The notes: a model not told the origin generated them from the letters alone. Numbered from the stretch's first letter, positions 1 to 8,275 are shown. The stretch is DNA of 64,000 nucleotides from Labrys okinawensis (GCF_002982075.1 NZ_PUEJ01000008.1:62001-126000); one strand, 5' to 3'. A program made the numbers and translations.

Positions 1-1
1 T

Positions 2-478
2 GGACATCTTCCCGCGATCGGCGCGGGCGCAGCGCATCCGACTATACCGAACCACAAAACCCGCACGCTCAGTGGGTTGAATCTGAAGCGGCTAGCCGCT
101 GCCCGTCCAGGTGTTTCGAACATTTATCTTGAAGATACGCCGCACGGGGACCTGTCGCTTCCTTGCCATCGCAAGGTCAATGCGAAGCTACAGACGCGGT
201 GCTTTACAGACGTCTACACGCGAATGGATCCCGATCGTCCGTCGCCCACGATTACGACGAAATGCCACAGCATCTCGAACGGCCGTTTCGGTCATTTCGA
301 CGTCGAGCAGCTGCGCGGAATATCTTTGCGCGAAGCGGCCATGCTGCAGTCCTTTCCTGCTAGCTATATCTTTTATCCAACCGATAAAATCGAACCTATT
401 GCCAGGATGATCGGCAATGCTGTGCCTCCGCGGCTGGCGGAATATTTTTCTCGCTATCTCCGTTCGTCGGTTGCGTAA
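2..478 (+). CDS. C5-cytosine DNA methyltransferase (Dcm-type), C-terminal part, truncated by window edge
   Basis: The reading frame is open from the left edge, so the gene begins outside the window and only about 158 C-terminal residues are seen. They contain the target-recognition tail and the last two conserved blocks of C5-cytosine methyltransferases: a PTITT stretch, RGISLREAAMLQSFP (motif IX region) and MIGNAVPP (motif X). The enzyme would transfer methyl groups from SAM to C5 of cytosine in a specific sequence. The catalytic PCQ loop is off-window. A 113-bp gap separates it from the GHKL ATPase gene on the same strand. With an HNH nuclease and a Vsr enzyme nearby, it most likely supplies the self-modification of a restriction-type defence locus. 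Family assignment is firm; target sequence unknown. Confidence 0.9.
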   Translation, partial: GHLPAIGAGAAHPTIPNHKTRTLSGLNLKRLAAARPGVSNIYLEDTPHGDLSLPCHRKVNAKLQTRCFTDVYTRMDPDRPSPTITTKCHSISNGRFGHFDVEQLRGISLREAAMLQSFPASYIFYPTDKIEPIARMIGNAVPPRLAEYFSRYLRSSVA

Positions 479-591: not shown

Positions 592-3549
592 ATGTCTGAT
601 GTGACCGAGTTCCAGGACGTTCCCGATGGAGCGGGCCTAGAGATCGTTGCATTCAAAACTCGGGCCCGTACGATTGATCATCTGGGGCGCGGGCAGATCG
701 CTGACGCTCCTACGGCGGTCAGCGAGCTGTGGAAGAATGCCTGGGACGCCTACGCCACGCAGGTTTCGCTGAATATTTTCGACGGCGATTCGATCATCGC
801 GGCGGTGTTCGACGACGGTGCGGGAATGTCCGCGCCGGATTTCACAGATCGCTGGCTCGTCGTGGGCACCGAGTCCAAGGTCGACGGCCCGGCGCCGCCC
901 CCACCGAAATTTTTCAAAGGGCCGCCGCGTCAGCGGCAAGGCGAAAAGGGTATCGGCCGGCTCTCCGCTGCTTTCCTTGCTCCGGCCACCCTGGTCCTGT
1001 CTCAGCAAGAAGACGGTGTGCTGTCGGCTGTCCTGGTAGACTGGCGCCTGTTTGAGAACCCTTATCTTTCACTCGACAACATAGCGCTTCCGGTTAGGAC
1101 CTTCGCCGATCCGGCGAGCGTCCTGTCGGGCCTCTCCTCGATGGTTGATGTGCTCCTTGGAAATCTCGGCGCCCTTGATGAGGAGGGCGTTCGGCATCTC
1201 AATCCGGCATGGGAGCGCTATTCAGAGGAGGAATGGCGCGAACATCGCTCCTCCACCGCGGATACGATCGTTAATTTCTGGGCTCGAATGCCGATTGAGC
1301 AGCGCCATCTCGATGAATGGCCAGTCATGGCGCATCTCGACACACACGGTACGGCGCTGTTCATGCTCGGGGCTCACCACGAGCTGTCGGTTTGGCTCGG
1401 CTCCTCACATGAGGATGAAGAGGCTGAAAGGGTGAAGGGCCGGCTCAAGGATATTTTGACGGGCTTCACTGATACCCTAGCGGAAAAGCCCGTAAGGTTC
1501 GAATATGAGGTTCTCGCCTATCGTGGAGAGATTCCCCGCCGGATTTTGGCGTCTTCCGACATTTTCGGTCTGGAGCAGTTTCGGGATCTCGAGCACACGG
1601 TCGAGGGTGCCTTTGATGAAGCGGGCGTCTTCAAGGGAAAAATAAAGGCCTTTGGAAAGGACCTCGGAGAACGGATAATCCCGCCGCCTCGACCGCTACC
1701 GACCGCCCCCAGCGAGCGCCCCGGACCCTTCGACTTTTGCATAGGAACCTTCGAGCAGGTCGCGACCAGTTCGTCGCATAACGCCCGACGTCACAGCGAT
1801 CTCGCCGCTCAAGTGCAGAAATATGGAGGAGTGCGGGTCTACCGAGACGGATTGCGCGTCATGCCGTACGGGTCCGCCGACGCCGACTTCTTTTCGCTCG
1901 AGGAAACGCGCCAGAAGCATGCCGGCCGATATTTCTGGGCGCACAGGCGCAGCTTCGGAAGGCTTGCTTTCACGCGCTCCGCGAATCCCTACTTGCGCGA
2001 CAAAGCAGGCCGAGAAGGACTGGTCGAAAATCGCGCGAGCCGCGAACTGCGAATACTTGTGCAGTCGCTGCTTATCGGTCTTGCCCGGGATTATTTCGGA
2101 ACGGACGCGCCAGAGCGCAGCGAGCGCATCGCCGAAGCTCAGAGCCGTAACGTCAAGGGCAAGAAGGCGGCGGATGATGCCCGTAAGAAGCGCAAAGCCG
2201 AGTTCAACGCTTACCTGAAGGACGCGGTTGCACGCATGCCGATGGTTGCCGCGCGGGCACAGAGCATTTCCGCTCGGATCGATGATTTGAGGGGTGATGT
2301 GGACCGGGAAGCCCTAGCTGTTCTGAGAGGTGAGATAGAGCAGACACGCGCGGAAATCGCTGCTCTCTCCCCCACTGACGTTCCTAGAACGATGGGTGCC
2401 GCAGAGGAGCGGTACCGCAATTTTCGCGACGAGCTAGATGACGCGCGCGAACTCGTCCGTGTCTCCGACGATGTGTTGCGAGGTCTGGAGGCGAAGGAGG
2501 GAGCCTCATCCCCTCGGGAAGTCGCCCGAGCCGTGCAGGTGCGCCATCGGGATGCCTTGAATAAGCAGTTGGACGGATACCAACAGCAAATTCGGGAGAA
2601 TATCCGCGCCGCAACCGGTGTTTGGACTGCGGCCCTGGCCGAGGACAAAGAGCGCTACGAGAAGGCGACAGCACCGTTCTTGCGCAATCTTTCAGCGTCC
2701 ACCAATCTCGCCGATATCCTGTCGCTTCTCGAGCTTAACCGACGCGAACTGGAGAGCGAGTTTTCGGATCGTTACAGGCCATTGATTCGCAATGTCGCCG
2801 CCGTGCTGGAAGGCATCGATGCCGAGACAGCTCTCACTGCGATCGATGACGACCGGGAGGAACTGGAGAGACGCGTTCGCGACCTCACCGCAGTGGCTCA
2901 GCTCGGCATCACCGTCGAGATCATCGCGCACGAGCTTGAGATGCTCGACAGCGAGGTAACCCGAAATCTTGATCGGTTGCCTCCTGAAATCCGTAACGAC
3001 CGCGCCTTTGGCCAAGCGGTAGCGGCCCATCAAGCGCTCACCGAGAAGCTCCGCTTCCTTTCCCCGCTGCAACTGGCTGGCGTGCGGATCAGAGAGCGGA
3101 TAACGGGCGCTCGCATCGCCGACTATGTGCAGGAGTTCTTCGGAGAACTCTTCCAGAGCAATCAGGTAGAATTTTATGCTTCGCCAGCATTTCGGAACAT
3201 CGAATTCACCGAGCTGCCGTCACGAATTTTCCCTGTGTTCGTAAACCTCGTCAACAACTCACTCTACTGGGTAGGACGCCTCGATACACGTTTGATCTAC
3301 TTCGACTTTGTGGACGGGAAAGTCGTGGTCGCTGACAGTGGGCCCGGGGTCGACAAGGATGATGTGGGTCGGCTTTTCCAGCTCTTCTTCACACGGCGAA
3401 ATGCTGGCAGGGGCGTCGGATTATATCTGGCGAGGGTGAATCTGGAGGCCGGACGTCACAACATCCGATACGCCACGGACGAAGATCCGCATGTGCTCCA
3501 GGGCGCGAATTTCATCATTGAGATCAGGGGGGTCTCTGCCGGTGGCTGA
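592..3549 (+). CDS. Dual GHKL ATPase: MORC/Hsp90-like N-terminus plus histidine-kinase-like C-terminus (defence-associated)
   Basis: A 985-aa protein. The N-terminal GHKL ATPase shows motif N (E45, N49 in ELWKNAWDA), the DGxG motif (D75-G-A-G78) and the glycine-rich lid GEKGIGRLS (about 117-125). A long helical, coiled-coil-rich middle follows (about 500-760). Around residue 775 comes an H-box-like IIAHELEML, then a second GHKL fold: NLVNNS (about 885), DSGPG (about 916), GRGVGLYLAR (about 941), as in sensor histidine kinases. The last bases overlap the downstream receiver gene by 8 bp, so the two are co-translated. Prokaryotic MORC-like ATPases linked to methylases, Vsr and HNH genes are known from comparative genomics (Iyer, Abhiman and Aravind). 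Inference: an ATP-driven sensor or loader for the nuclease. The start is the first ATG; its ribosome site is weak. Confidence 0.85.
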   Translation: MSDVTEFQDVPDGAGLEIVAFKTRARTIDHLGRGQIADAPTAVSELWKNAWDAYATQVSLNIFDGDSIIAAVFDDGAGMSAPDFTDRWLVVGTESKVDGPAPPPPKFFKGPPRQRQGEKGIGRLSAAFLAPATLVLSQQEDGVLSAVLVDWRLFENPYLSLDNIALPVRTFADPASVLSGLSSMVDVLLGNLGALDEEGVRHLNPAWERYSEEEWREHRSSTADTIVNFWARMPIEQRHLDEWPVMAHLDTHGTALFMLGAHHELSVWLGSSHEDEEAERVKGRLKDILTGFTDTLAEKPVRFEYEVLAYRGEIPRRILASSDIFGLEQFRDLEHTVEGAFDEAGVFKGKIKAFGKDLGERIIPPPRPLPTAPSERPGPFDFCIGTFEQVATSSSHNARRHSDLAAQVQKYGGVRVYRDGLRVMPYGSADADFFSLEETRQKHAGRYFWAHRRSFGRLAFTRSANPYLRDKAGREGLVENRASRELRILVQSLLIGLARDYFGTDAPERSERIAEAQSRNVKGKKAADDARKKRKAEFNAYLKDAVARMPMVAARAQSISARIDDLRGDVDREALAVLRGEIEQTRAEIAALSPTDVPRTMGAAEERYRNFRDELDDARELVRVSDDVLRGLEAKEGASSPREVARAVQVRHRDALNKQLDGYQQQIRENIRAATGVWTAALAEDKERYEKATAPFLRNLSASTNLADILSLLELNRRELESEFSDRYRPLIRNVAAVLEGIDAETALTAIDDDREELERRVRDLTAVAQLGITVEIIAHELEMLDSEVTRNLDRLPPEIRNDRAFGQAVAAHQALTEKLRFLSPLQLAGVRIRERITGARIADYVQEFFGELFQSNQVEFYASPAFRNIEFTELPSRIFPVFVNLVNNSLYWVGRLDTRLIYFDFVDGKVVVADSGPGVDKDDVGRLFQLFFTRRNAGRGVGLYLARVNLEAGRHNIRYATDEDPHVLQGANFIIEIRGVSAGG

Positions 3550-5347
3550 TGTAGCAGAAGTCGACTACGGCGCTGCGGTCGAGGCGAGCTTTCGCGACCG
3601 TGCGATCCGAACCGCAGTCCTGATCGATGATCAGTTTCCCGACTATCTCCAGATCGGCACCGAAGACGTTGGCGCCTTTAAGGAAACGGCTCGGGCAAAA
3701 AGCATCTACCAGTTCATTCATCGTCGCGGGCTGATCTGCGACGTTCTGAATTGGCGTGAGGTTGGAGAGGCCCGGCTCGAACTGATCGACAAGGTTCGCA
3801 AGAGCGACCTGATCGTGCTCGACTACAAGCTTGACGGGGACAATCCCGAGCCCGCCCTCCAAATTTTGCGTCGGCTCGCCAACACGGACCATTTCAACAT
3901 GGTCGTGCTTTACACCGCTGACGTAACCGCGCCGGTGGCCGTGGCGGTGGCTGCAGCGATGCGTGGGGTATCGCCGCCGGATCAGCGTGCGATGCTAAAA
4001 CCCGCCGAGGAAGAGGCGGCCCACGACTTCCTTGAGGACCCAGTTAATGCGGAGGTCGACGGACCTGCCTTGCTCTCCTGGCTGGTCGACGGGGATGCAC
4101 CGAACGAATGGAAGAAGGATTTCGTGGTCCGCATGCGGGAAGCGGGTGTCGACGTAGGCGTAAACAAGCTGCTCGATACGCTGCGGCGGAGGTGGCTGAA
4201 GCAACTCGTTGGCGACTATGAGCATGAGTCGACCCCGATCCTCAGCATCCGCTCTAGCAGCTATGGAGCCGACGATCTTTGGGTTCAATGCGGCAGCTGT
4301 TTCGTCACGATCGTCAGGAAAGTTAAGGCCGACCAACATGCTGACGAAGGCGAATTGATCTGGACGAAGCTCGGCGCGGCGCTGCGCGCCTGGCACCCGA
4401 ATCTGTACCGGCTGCTACTGTCGGACATCCAAAATGCTCTAGAGCAGGAATCGATCGCGGACCATGCGCGGTGGCTGGCGGATGATCTCTGTGCTGGCCT
4501 CGGCCTCTACCTGTTGCCGAATGATGCCGCGGTGCGTGAAGCGGCGAATGGTGCGGTGCGTCGGGGGGCGATCGAAGACCTGATCGACCGGTTCTTGGAT
4601 ATGATGCGCCATCGGTTGGCGCTCAACGACAGGCTTGCCGCCAGCGGCGCGGACTTGCTGGGAGAGCGGCTGGCACAACCGCTTGCGCCTCGTCCAGCCG
4701 AAAGCGATCGTTATGCCCGAGCCCGTCAACTAGCTCATTGGACGGACGATGCGGAACCAGATTGGCGGGGAAAAGTCGTCACCTCCGTCAACGCCTTCAT
4801 GGTTTCGGACGAATTTCGTGGATCGCATATCACCACCGGCTCGGTGCTGTACGATCCGGCAACTGAGAAATACTGGCTGTGCGTGTCGCCAGCTTGCGAT
4901 CTTGTTCCTCGAGGCGAGGAACTCTCGAGGATCGTTCAGGTCATACAGCTCAATGAAGAGAATGTGGTGGGGGATCTCAGTCGGGGCGACCGTATCGTCG
5001 TCACCGTAAAGGGCGGATCCAAGGTTCTGCGCGTCCTGCACGCGGAGACCCGCCAACCGGACTTGCGCGCGATTTACTTACCCCATGGCACCACCGTACA
5101 GGTCGATGCTGCGTCCGGCGATCCGATGCTTCAAGGCGCGTCGGGAGAGCAGGTTCAGAGGTTGATCGTAGGAGCCGCGGCGGCCGAACTTGTGGACCCA
5201 CAAGGCGACGCGAAGAGAGCACTGGCCGAATTCGGGCTCTCGACCTATCGAGTGGTATCTCAGCTGAGGAGCGCGTTTGCGCTGCGCCTGCTCCATGTGA
5301 CGGGTCATCACTTGTCGCGCGTCGGCGTCGACTTTGTTGATGTCTGA
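3542..5347 (+). CDS. Receiver-domain protein with long uncharacterised C-terminus, partner of the GHKL ATPase
   Basis: I start at GTG 3542, which overlaps the stop of the ATPase gene and follows a purine-rich AGGGGGG; this gives 601 aa. Residues 20-155 look like a complete response-regulator receiver: acidic pair D29/D30, phospho-acceptor D94 in VLDYKL, T125 in LYTAD and K153 in LKP. The remaining 440 residues match nothing I recognise; they hold no clear DNA-binding or nuclease motif. Fully conserved switch residues next to an ATPase with a histidine-kinase-like C-terminus suggest a phosphotransfer switch inside a restriction-type locus. That is inference: receiver-like proteins are known beside such ATPases but a mechanism is not established to my knowledge. 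A longer in-frame ORF begins at 3491 but lies wholly within the ATPase gene. Confidence 0.75.
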   Translation: MADVAEVDYGAAVEASFRDRAIRTAVLIDDQFPDYLQIGTEDVGAFKETARAKSIYQFIHRRGLICDVLNWREVGEARLELIDKVRKSDLIVLDYKLDGDNPEPALQILRRLANTDHFNMVVLYTADVTAPVAVAVAAAMRGVSPPDQRAMLKPAEEEAAHDFLEDPVNAEVDGPALLSWLVDGDAPNEWKKDFVVRMREAGVDVGVNKLLDTLRRRWLKQLVGDYEHESTPILSIRSSSYGADDLWVQCGSCFVTIVRKVKADQHADEGELIWTKLGAALRAWHPNLYRLLLSDIQNALEQESIADHARWLADDLCAGLGLYLLPNDAAVREAANGAVRRGAIEDLIDRFLDMMRHRLALNDRLAASGADLLGERLAQPLAPRPAESDRYARARQLAHWTDDAEPDWRGKVVTSVNAFMVSDEFRGSHITTGSVLYDPATEKYWLCVSPACDLVPRGEELSRIVQVIQLNEENVVGDLSRGDRIVVTVKGGSKVLRVLHAETRQPDLRAIYLPHGTTVQVDAASGDPMLQGASGEQVQRLIVGAAAAELVDPQGDAKRALAEFGLSTYRVVSQLRSAFALRLLHVTGHHLSRVGVDFVDV

Positions 5348-5368: not shown

Positions 5369-6139
5369 ATGCAGCGGTCGGCTGAATTGATGATGGTGGG
5401 ATGCTTCCTATCTCGCTTCGGCGAGATCGGGGCCAACGGGAAAAGTGCTCCTCCTGAGGAAGTCGGGACGTCGACCTGGGCCAACGCCTATCTCTGCTTC
5501 TATCGCAGCCTCTCGGGAGGCCGGTCGATCCGCCAGTTCGGACACGCCTTGAAAAATACGCGCGACGAGTTCGACGGATTCTTTGCGAACGGCCGAGTCG
5601 GTTGGCGTTCTAAGAGTCTGGAACGGGAAGCGCGGCCGCTGACACCCGATATGCAACTCGTCTTCGATCGCTGCTTGAGAATGGACCGTTCAGATCATTG
5701 GCTGCAAATCGCCAAGTACCGCTCGCTGGATTGGTACCTGGCTGAACTCCCGGAAGTCAATCGGCTCAAGGAAAACCCGAACGCGTCCGAACTGGCCGAT
5801 ATCATTTCTCGCACTGAGGGAGGTCGCAAGGTCGCCCTTCTCCAGCGGGTGGAACGCGACCCGCGTCTGCGAGCGCAAGCGATGAAGCTGCATGGACCGG
5901 TGTGTATGGCCTGCGGCTTCGATTTTGAAGCGGTATATGGGTCGTGGGGAGCAGGCTTTTGCGAAGTTCATCACTTGTCTCCCCTCGGAGAGGCCGAGAG
6001 CAAGCCACGCCTGACAAATCCGCTGTACGACTTGGCGGTGGTCTGCGCGAACTGCCATCGCATGATCCATCGGCAACCGGGGATCACGTTGAGCATCGCC
6101 GAGCTGCGTGAGAAGTTACGGGTCGGGAACTGCCGCTGA
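5369..6139 (+). CDS. HNH endonuclease of the defence island
   Basis: 256 aa. The C-terminal third is a zinc-bound HNH nuclease of the McrA type: CMAC (C179, C182), EVHHL (H202-H203), an Asn in the loop (LTNPLYDLAVVC) and CANCHRMIH. The N-terminal 170 residues are an uncharacterised, probably DNA- or substrate-recognising region. The gene starts 21 bp after the receiver gene and reads in the same direction, so it is probably in the same transcript as the methyltransferase, ATPase and receiver genes. It is the best candidate for the cleaving subunit. The last 24 bp overlap the convergent vsr gene. Confidence 0.85.
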   Translation: MQRSAELMMVGCFLSRFGEIGANGKSAPPEEVGTSTWANAYLCFYRSLSGGRSIRQFGHALKNTRDEFDGFFANGRVGWRSKSLEREARPLTPDMQLVFDRCLRMDRSDHWLQIAKYRSLDWYLAELPEVNRLKENPNASELADIISRTEGGRKVALLQRVERDPRLRAQAMKLHGPVCMACGFDFEAVYGSWGAGFCEVHHLSPLGEAESKPRLTNPLYDLAVVCANCHRMIHRQPGITLSIAELREKLRVGNCR

Positions 6140-6646
6140 GGAGGAGGTGTCAGCCGCTCCCTCGGCGAGCACTAGCTGATCGCCACCGCATCTCAGCCAA
6201 TTGTGAATGTGCTCGGCCGCGAATTCCGCACCGAGCCGGTTTTTGCCGAGCAGCGCACATTGCCAAACGGTCGCCACCCGCCAGCCCTCTGCACGCAGCC
6301 GAGCCACTTGCGCCGCGTCGCGATCGGCATTTTTGCCGATCTTTTCAGCCCAGAAATCTACGTTCGATTGCGGTGGTGCTGCGCGCGCGCATTCGTGACC
6401 ATGCCAGAAGCAGCCGTGGACAAATACGACGGCGCGCCAACGCGGCAGCACAATGTCGGGTCGGCCCACCATACGAGCGCCGTGAAGCCGGTATCGCAGG
6501 CCGCGGGCGTGCAAAGCACGGCGCAGCATTATCTCCGGTTTTGTGTCCCGTGATTTCACGCGGCTCATGGCAAAGGATCGCTGCTCGACGCTTAGTTTGT
6601 CACGGCGATTGGCTTGCCCATTATGGGGAACTTCATCAGACATTGC
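6116..6646 (-). CDS. vsr: Very short patch repair (Vsr) endonuclease
   Basis: From the internal ATG at 6646 the protein has 176 aa; upstream in-frame starts at 6655 and 6724 exist but the extra residues are not family-like. It carries the Vsr signature: SRVKSRDTKPE near the start, catalytic D63 in GRPDIVLP, H76 and F79-W80-H81 in FVHGCFWHGHEC, a zinc-type Cys/His set, and a conserved TVWQCAL tail. E. coli Vsr (156 aa) nicks 5' of the thymine in T:G mismatches that arise by deamination of 5-methylcytosine, which explains its linkage to a C5-cytosine methyltransferase. It is transcribed toward the HNH gene and the two 3' ends overlap by 24 bp. In the MORC-type defence clusters Vsr-fold enzymes may also act as effector nucleases; both roles are possible. 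Confidence 0.92.
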   Translation of the reverse strand, partial: AMSDEVPHNGQANRRDKLSVEQRSFAMSRVKSRDTKPEIMLRRALHARGLRYRLHGARMVGRPDIVLPRWRAVVFVHGCFWHGHECARAAPPQSNVDFWAEKIGKNADRDAAQVARLRAEGWRVATVWQCALLGKNRLGAEFAAEHIHNWLRCGGDQLVLAEGAADTSSSAAVPDP

Positions 6647-6724
6647 GGGCATTCGACTTTCTGTCGGCTGTTTTCGGTATTCGGACGGGAGCCACGCTGA
6701 TGATAGCATGCCACCTGTAGCCAA

Positions 6725-8035: not shown

Positions 8036-8275
8036 CGTCATCCCCGGCCATATCGTCACGAGCTTTGCTCGTGCGTGGTAGCGGAGGAAGGAGATCCAGG
8101 AGCTACAGCGTTTTGCGGCTGCGTGGAATCACCAAGAATCGCAAAGACGCGTCGAACCGGAGAGCCGGAGCAAAACGGCGTCTGCGCCCGAACGCGCCTT
8201 GGTTCTGCGGGCGCGGATTTTGGCCGTGGACTGCCTTCCCGCCGCCTTCTGCGGAACGCGTGCGATGGCGGGGAT
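8036..8275. repeat. Dispersed intergenic repeat R1, copy 1
   Basis: About 240 bp shared with 9397-9695. Matching landmarks in order are GTCATCCCCGGCC, a small hairpin around TCGTCACGAGC/GCTCGTG, ACCAAGAATCGCAAAGACGCG, GAACGCGC and a 3' segment GATTTTGGCCGTGGA followed by a CGCC..GGCG hairpin. It fills most of the gap between tehA and the gene at 8386 and contains no gene of its own. This is a REP-like chromosomal repeat of the sort common in rhizobial intergenic DNA. Confidence 0.75.

What the first reader, a model, noticed from the sequence alone, without database searches (positions are those of the whole stretch)
592..5347. Apparent phosphotransfer switch inside a restriction-type system
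The ATPase carries two GHKL folds: a MORC/Hsp90-like one at the start and one at the end with an H-box-like IIAHELEML. The next gene holds a receiver with every switch residue (D29, D30, D94, T125, K153). Together they look like a two-component relay coupled to an ATP-driven DNA machine.
Basis: inference. Interest (0 to 1): 0.7.

Follow-up and report, generated by a model that had tools for sequence, protein, structure and literature searches.

The report
Predicted His-Asp relay beside DNA methylase
This is a horizontally acquired gene cassette in which a DNA-clamp-like ATPase fused to a signalling kinase sits next to its predicted phosphate-receiving partner and a DNA methylase; the family was described from sequence in 2021, its function is untested, and this copy looks intact.

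Summary
The 985-aa protein has a MORC/Hsp90-like ATPase half and a complete histidine-kinase half (H780). The next protein has a receiver domain.

The kind is not new. Bellieny-Rabelo et al. [quoted passage not shown] I found no experiment on it in the library searched.

Not seen in that paper: the displaced lysine, a conserved unknown output domain (G…C-x4-CD…R-x-G), a probable exchange of methylases between lineages, an 8.2-kb low-GC cassette at a site occupied by other genes in relatives, and copies on predicted viruses. Phosphotransfer and coupling to DNA cleavage remain inference.

The parts
1..478 (+). 3' end of a C5-cytosine DNA methylase gene. The whole gene starts 749 bases upstream of the window (L002:6252-7478, G000:C21:61252-62478, 408 aa). 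It is the only C5-methylase match in the held genome
   Evidence: Pfam DNA_methylase 135.8 bits; only PF00145 gene in G000
592..3549 (+). 985-aa paraMORC-type ATPase fused to a histidine kinase (HATPase_c_3 + coiled coil + HEF_HK + HATPase_c)
   Evidence: dN/dS about 0.04 against L007, dS saturated
712..1047 (+). N-terminal GHKL ATPase domain (residues 41-152; E45, N49, D74, GxKGIGR invariant in 28/28)
2899..3072 (+). HEF_HK / DHp dimerisation and phospho-acceptor helices; H780 codon at 2929-2931
3220..3525 (+). C-terminal HATPase_c kinase domain: N885, N889, G917, G939, G941, G943 invariant; D915 is Asp in 21 and Asn in 7 of 28
3491..5347 (+). 618-aa response-regulator-like protein (likely real start GTG at 3542, overlapping the kinase gene)
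   Evidence: dN/dS about 0.07 against L007, dS saturated
3602..3961 (+). receiver domain, strands 1-4 (residues 38-157): D46, D47, D111 (phospho-acceptor, codon 3821-3823), T142
4280..4393 (+). displaced end of the receiver: strand 5 and helix 5 (residues 264-301) with invariant K277 (codon 4319-4321), after an insert of about 110 residues
4790..5326 (+). unknown output domain (residues 434-612) with invariant G450, C469-D470 and nearly invariant C464, R610, G612
   Evidence: no Pfam or PDB sequence match to this part
5369..6139 (+). HNH endonuclease gene, 21 bases after the receiver gene; accessory, also present in the closest relative L007
   Evidence: HNH 21.1 bits against cut-off 21.4; PADLOC mREase_IV 2e-6
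6116..6724 (-). Vsr mismatch endonuclease gene, convergent with and overlapping the HNH gene
   Evidence: Pfam Vsr 112.6 bits; TIGR00632 141.7 bits, cut-off 97.85

Best explanation
This is a member of the HEF_HK / Response_reg_2 family: a soluble His-Asp signalling pair whose sensor half is a MORC/MutL-like DNA-clamp ATPase, encoded with a C5-cytosine methylase and accessory nucleases on a mobile defence-type cassette. Proposed working, step by step. (1) The methylase marks the cell's own DNA (inferred from its family). (2) The N-terminal GHKL module closes on ATP and DNA, as MORC and MutL do, and acts as the sensor of foreign or unmethylated DNA (inferred). (3) This changes the coiled coil and the DHp helices, and the C-terminal kinase domain phosphorylates H780 (machinery shown in sequence and model; activity inferred). 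(4) The phosphoryl group passes to D111 of the adjacent receiver (residues shown; transfer inferred). (5) The phosphorylated partner switches its C-terminal C-x4-CD output domain, which licenses restriction by the kinase/regulator complex and whichever nuclease is present (inferred). Step 4 is the most likely to be right, step 5 the least. The stated confidence is for the whole chain through to control of restriction or anti-phage defence; I put the relay itself (steps 3-4) at about 0.8 and family identity at about 0.97.
For: Family: Pfam matches over all cut-offs; same architecture and neighbours as in PMC8011034. Kinase: H780, E/D781, N885, N889 and the G-box glycines conserved in 28/28 and, in the later set, 22/22; profile alignment with the family's His-Glu on that of ThkA; DHp helix pair in the model; fold matches to FixL, ZraS and HK853-RR468. 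Clamp: fold matches to SMCHD1 (3e-10), MORC2 with DNA, MORC3, Hsp90. Receiver: D, D, D, T and K conserved. Pairing: a receiver gene follows the kinase gene in all 28 core pairs, in 7 of 7 divergent plasmid versions, and wherever a downstream ORF was found in the viral versions examined. Kinase and receiver trees both give the same two clades. System context: methylase adjacent in 27 of 28, the exception being at a contig end. Low-GC 8.2-kb cassette at a site that in relatives holds a reverse transcriptase of the DRT type or a NACHT-like NTPase.
Against: No biochemical or genetic result exists for any member that I could find in the library. A recognisable nuclease is not a constant part: Pseudoalteromonas and Pantoea loci are annotated with methylase, kinase and receiver alone, so the cleaving enzyme, if any, is unknown there. 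The output domain has no recognised relative. D915 of the kinase G1 box is Asn in 7 of 28, though ThkA also has Asn there. The model is of low confidence around H780 itself (block pLDDT 48 for 771-780, 66 for 781-790). The receiver fold matches are individually weak (best receiver E 8e-3), and the model of the receiver protein is moderate (mean pLDDT 66.7) and poor in the insert.
Confidence: 0.5

Rival explanations
1. An ordinary transcriptional two-component system: the receiver protein, once phosphorylated, changes expression of the methylase and nuclease genes (or other genes) and does not act on DNA cleavage directly. This is close to what the 2021 authors speculated.
For: Kinase and receiver machinery as above. 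Proposed as signalling controlling, directly or indirectly, R-M systems in PMC8011034.
Against: No DNA-binding domain was recognised in the receiver protein. In this locus and its two closest relatives a small MerR/HTH-like gene precedes the methylase, with a perfect 16-bp palindrome just upstream of it in this locus, so the operon seems to have its own regulator.
Confidence: 0.2
2. The signalling residues are vestigial: the protein is a structural double-ATPase of a restriction complex and the receiver is only a docking domain.
For: Response-regulator-like proteins that are not phosphorylated are known (own knowledge). G1-box Asp is Asn in 7 of 28.
Against: H780, the kinase Asn residues and the G-box glycines, and the acceptor Asp, are unreplaced in all intact sequences examined, in proteins down to about 10% (receiver) and 23% (kinase) pairwise identity. 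dN/dS is about 0.04 and 0.07 against L007 (dS saturated).
Confidence: 0.13
3. A signalling pair unrelated to defence (for example sensing nucleotide levels) that merely travels with R-M genes on mobile cassettes.
For: Plasmid versions in Rhizorhabdus and Polaromonas have no methylase among the annotated neighbours.
Against: Methylase next to it in 27 of 28 core loci and in all 14 full-length viral-contig loci; site shared with DRT-type and NACHT-like genes in relatives.
Confidence: 0.12

Closest known systems
HEF_HK (PF19191) / Response_reg_2 (PF19192) two-component-like pair, Bellieny-Rabelo et al. 2021, PMC8011034
   Same: Architecture HATPase_c_3 + HEF_HK + HATPase_c (their group 1), adjacent Response_reg_2 gene, C5-methylase, HNH and Vsr neighbours; Sphingomonas is listed there among genera with Vsr in the neighbourhood
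   Different: In this clade the receiver's fifth strand and Lys lie far beyond the end of the Pfam match (residue 187), after an insert of about 110 residues
paraMORC ATPases of restriction-modification operons, Iyer et al. 2008, PMC2292703
   Same: N-terminal GHKL plus following transducer region, methylase/Vsr/HNH neighbourhood
   Different: A second GHKL domain with a DHp turns it into a kinase; no superfamily II helicase was seen beside this copy
HgiDII/BbrUII-family restriction enzymes (NF050001)
   Same: N-terminal GHKL domain matches (residues 26-147)
   Different: No match beyond that domain; 59.6 bits against a cut-off of 550
Canonical two-component systems such as ThkA/TrrA and HK853/RR468
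   Same: DHp and catalytic core and receiver residues
   Different: The sensor half is a MORC-like ATPase instead of a membrane or PAS sensor; the output domain is unknown, not a recognised DNA-binding domain
HATPase + REC system listed among unvalidated predictions of DefensePredictor (Science 2026, PMC13092281)
   Same: The figure legend names HATPase and receiver domains among predicted defence systems not yet validated
   Different: The figure itself is not held, so whether it is this family could not be checked
Detocs (own knowledge, Rousset et al. 2023)
   Same: A two-component-like design used in anti-phage defence
   Different: None of the proteins tested matched a Detocs model in PADLOC-DB v2.0.0 (whether that version holds one was not checked); no methylase is part of Detocs as I know it

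Membership tests
HEF_HK / Response_reg_2 pair (PMC8011034) | Protein with HATPase_c_3, HEF_HK and HATPase_c in that order | tested here: met
   47.1, 27.0 and 44.7 bits, all over cut-off
HEF_HK / Response_reg_2 pair (PMC8011034) | Adjacent gene with Response_reg_2 | tested here: met
   90.1 bits, cut-off 27; genes overlap
HEF_HK / Response_reg_2 pair (PMC8011034) | C5-methylase upstream, R-M genes nearby | tested here: met
HEF_HK / Response_reg_2 pair (PMC8011034) | Soluble, no membrane segment | tested here: met
   Best 19-residue hydropathy 1.50 in the kinase, below the usual 1.6; no dedicated predictor was run
Two-component system | DHp His with intact kinase motifs | tested here: met
Two-component system | Receiver with acidic pair, acceptor Asp, Thr/Ser and Lys | tested here: met
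   D46, D47, D111, T142, K277
Two-component system | Phosphotransfer from His to Asp | not testable with these tools
   needs biochemistry
paraMORC | N-terminal GHKL ATPase with the MORC-type transducer region | tested here: met
   Foldseek matches to SMCHD1, MORC2, MORC3 modules, E 3e-10 to 7e-8 over about 500 columns
paraMORC | ATP-dependent DNA clamping or looping | not testable with these tools
   needs biochemistry
Type II restriction-modification | Methylase plus a cognate endonuclease of the same sequence specificity | tested here: inconclusive
   Methylase present; HNH gene just under Pfam cut-off and not constant in the family; specificity unknown
HgiDII/BbrUII restriction enzymes | Full-length match to NF050001 | tested here: not met
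   59.6 bits against 550
Detocs | Match to Detocs component models | tested here: inconclusive
   No Detocs hit in PADLOC-DB, but the presence of such models in that version was not verified

The most novel reading that the evidence does not exclude
A His-Asp phosphorelay directly gates an immune effector: the MORC-like clamp senses non-self (wrongly methylated) DNA, and the phosphorylated receiver protein is itself the effector or its switch through a new catalytic output domain (C-x4-CD with a distal R-x-G). That would explain loci that consist of methylase, kinase and receiver alone.
Probability: 0.2. Interest if true: 0.8.

Novelty: new member of a known kind. Interest (0 to 1): 0.42.

Why it matters
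If the relay works, it would couple two-component signalling to a MORC/MutL-type DNA machine in bacterial DNA defence, and would give a bacterial system in which the poorly understood mechanics of MORC ATPases could be read out as a phosphorylation signal. The family has been named since 2021; I found no experimental test in the library, and the residues to mutate (H780, D111, K277, C469, D470, plus E45/N49 in the clamp) are now well supported.

Tried and rejected
D915N as a sign of a dead kinase: weakened, since ThkA carries Asn at the aligned place. Chance resemblance to a receiver: rejected. HgiDII-type restriction enzyme: only the first domain matches. Output domain identity: no match in Pfam or by sequence in the PDB; Foldseek hits for the whole protein are receivers and unspecific folds. 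PHROGs gave only families without a useful function. E. coli search with a divergent gammaproteobacterial query found nothing; this does not show absence, since the 2021 paper lists E. coli members. Phages and plasmids by protein with the window's receiver: none; other queries found plasmid versions. One of my own computations is discarded: the methylase dN/dS, because the L007 slice was out of frame. An Rfam search of the cassette was empty. No DCA-type coevolution between kinase and receiver was attempted: 28 pairs are too few.

Full report
What is there. The window begins inside a cassette. Upstream sequence from the same genome (L002) shows a 408-aa C5-methylase that ends at window position 478, then the 985-aa ATPase/kinase (592-3549), the 618-aa receiver protein (3491-5347), an HNH gene (5369-6139) and a convergent Vsr gene (6116-6724, minus strand). 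A 68-aa HTH/MerR-like gene lies just before and overlaps the methylase start; it is 81% and 55% identical in the two closest relatives, its Pfam matches are below cut-off, and a perfect 16-bp palindrome lies just upstream of it.

Check of the claim. All four domain matches are over the Pfam cut-offs. I collected 28 kinase/receiver pairs from whole genomes, genome contigs and plasmids. Mean pairwise identity is 33% for the kinase and 21% for the receiver protein. H780 is 28/28, followed by Glu or Asp in all; N885, N889 and G917, G939, G941, G943 are 28/28; D915 is 21 Asp, 7 Asn. In the N-terminal ATPase, E45, N49, D74 and GxKGIGR are 28/28. In the receiver D46 and D111 are 28/28, D47 26/28, T142 27/28. 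A later scan of viral contigs was used as a set fetched after these columns were chosen: H 22/22, kinase Asn and Gly residues 22/22, first acidic Asp and acceptor Asp 15/15 where the segment is intact, Thr/Ser 16/16. The rows of that set are not all independent: L103 and L104 are near-identical and L104's receiver gene is split.

The lysine. In the predicted model strands 1-4 run to residue 142, then helix 4 (146-157), then a mostly low-confidence stretch, then strand 270-276 and helix 286-301. K277 ends that strand and is invariant in the 17 members of this clade; the other 11 members have an invariant Lys (K180 in L025) without the long insert. Pfam's match ends at residue 187 and so misses this part.

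The kinase. A family profile finds histidine kinases in the PDB over the whole DHp and catalytic core (ThkA 3a0r, E=1e-19, profile positions 746-970), with the family's His-Glu on that of ThkA. The model (mean pLDDT 78.8) has helices 744-794 and 804-821 and a catalytic domain 835-977; the segment around H780 itself has low confidence (block pLDDT 41-48 for 741-780, 66 for 781-790). Foldseek ranks SMCHD1 (3e-10), MORC2, MORC3 and Hsp90 for the front half and FixL, ZraS, CpxA and HK853-RR468 for the back half.

The output domain. The last third of the receiver protein carries G450, C469-D470 and nearly invariant C464, R610, G612. In the later set G450, C469, D470, R610 and G612 are 16/16 and C464 is 14/16. 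No Pfam, PDB-sequence or PHROG function was found. More distant kinase neighbours on plasmids (Campylobacter, Allorhizobium, Rhizorhabdus, Devosia, Polaromonas, Deinococcus) are receiver-like proteins, and 6 of 7 share an xxCD motif in a similar setting, as do several viral-contig versions. These distant similarities are by motif and weak profile scores, so common descent of the output domain is likely, not proven.

How the module evolves. Kinase and receiver trees both separate the same two clades with SH-aLRT 100 (quick trees without bootstrap). The methylase tree does not: the methylase of this locus and three relatives groups with the other clade's methylases (starred branches; AU test p=0.039), but long branches meet there, so exchange of the methylase is likely, not certain. 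Distances correlate between kinase and receiver (r=0.83) more than between kinase and methylase (r=0.52). Nucleases differ between loci: HNH here and in L007, Mrr_cat in L031, NOV_C in L053 and L058, while Pseudoalteromonas and Pantoea loci are annotated with none. Not every neighbour of every locus was scanned.

Mobility. The stretch that differs from relatives lies between L002 5807 and 14011 (8205 bases); its GC is 0.590 against 0.681 to the left and 0.639 to the right. Two same-genus genomes match the flanks. In G002 the sequence beyond the left flank holds a reverse transcriptase of the DRT type; its contigs end there, so what joins the two flanks is not fully seen. In G003 a 1370-aa NTPase with sub-threshold NACHT/AAA matches stands there, with a larger deletion on the right. 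Full-length versions lie on 14 predicted viral contigs. The family is sparse: 5 of 385 class-level and 11 of 398 phylum-level genomes. One genome (G352) has a broken copy.

Known or new. Bellieny-Rabelo et al. 2021 described these two domains, their linkage (91.6% of 644 regions), the methylase, HNH and Vsr neighbours, the paraMORC origin and the two-component idea. This copy is a new member. I did not see in that text the displaced lysine in this clade, the conserved output domain, the likely methylase exchange or the shared insertion site; I read five of its seven parts, not its supplements. My literature search covered only the open-access library, so an experiment in a subscription journal could exist.

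Verdict. Identity is close to certain; a working relay is likely; coupling to restriction is a reasonable inference from gene neighbourhood and MORC/MutL analogy and is untested.

Noticed in passing
L002:6049-6255 and 6015-6030 (746 to 986 bases upstream of the window start): Small HTH/MerR-like gene overlapping the methylase start, with the perfect palindrome GTTGACTATAGTCAAC just before it; homologues at the same place in L007 and L008. A candidate operon regulator.
   Followed up: partly
L002:5807-14011; G002:C58 end (L090); G003:C1 (L087:3316-7428): Same chromosomal site holds this cassette, a DRT-type reverse transcriptase or a 1370-aa NACHT-like NTPase in different genomes of the genus: a possible defence hotspot.
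   Followed up: partly
L002:4200-4293 and L002:15100-15202 (window about 8100-8202): Two dispersed repeats of about 90-100 bases with dozens of matches in most genomes of the genus; the first also matches on both strands at several places (palindromic).
   Followed up: no
L063:5992-10442 and about 40 Campylobacter plasmid records: Conjugative Campylobacter plasmids carry a shorter version: paraMORC-kinase (731 aa), receiver protein (340 aa) with the same CD motif, and a C5-methylase on the opposite strand.
   Followed up: partly
L065:4541-9508 (Deinococcus gobiensis plasmid P2): Related kinase between an Eco57I-type methylase and a 215-aa receiver protein, then an HNH gene: the pair is not tied to C5-methylases.
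   Followed up: partly
L020:3972-13099 (G352) and L047:7001-10824 (Pseudomonas syringae plasmid): Decayed copies: frames broken in G352, split and IS5-interrupted in the P. syringae plasmid; loss of the module is tolerated.
   Followed up: no
L030:3105-6308 and L060: Further paraMORC/kinase-like ORFs near or outside the core family, partners not examined.
   Followed up: no
L053:4610-5464 and L058:8924-9751: NOV_C proteins next to the module; L053's is a strong match to the candidate defence protein PDC-S36 of PADLOC.
   Followed up: no
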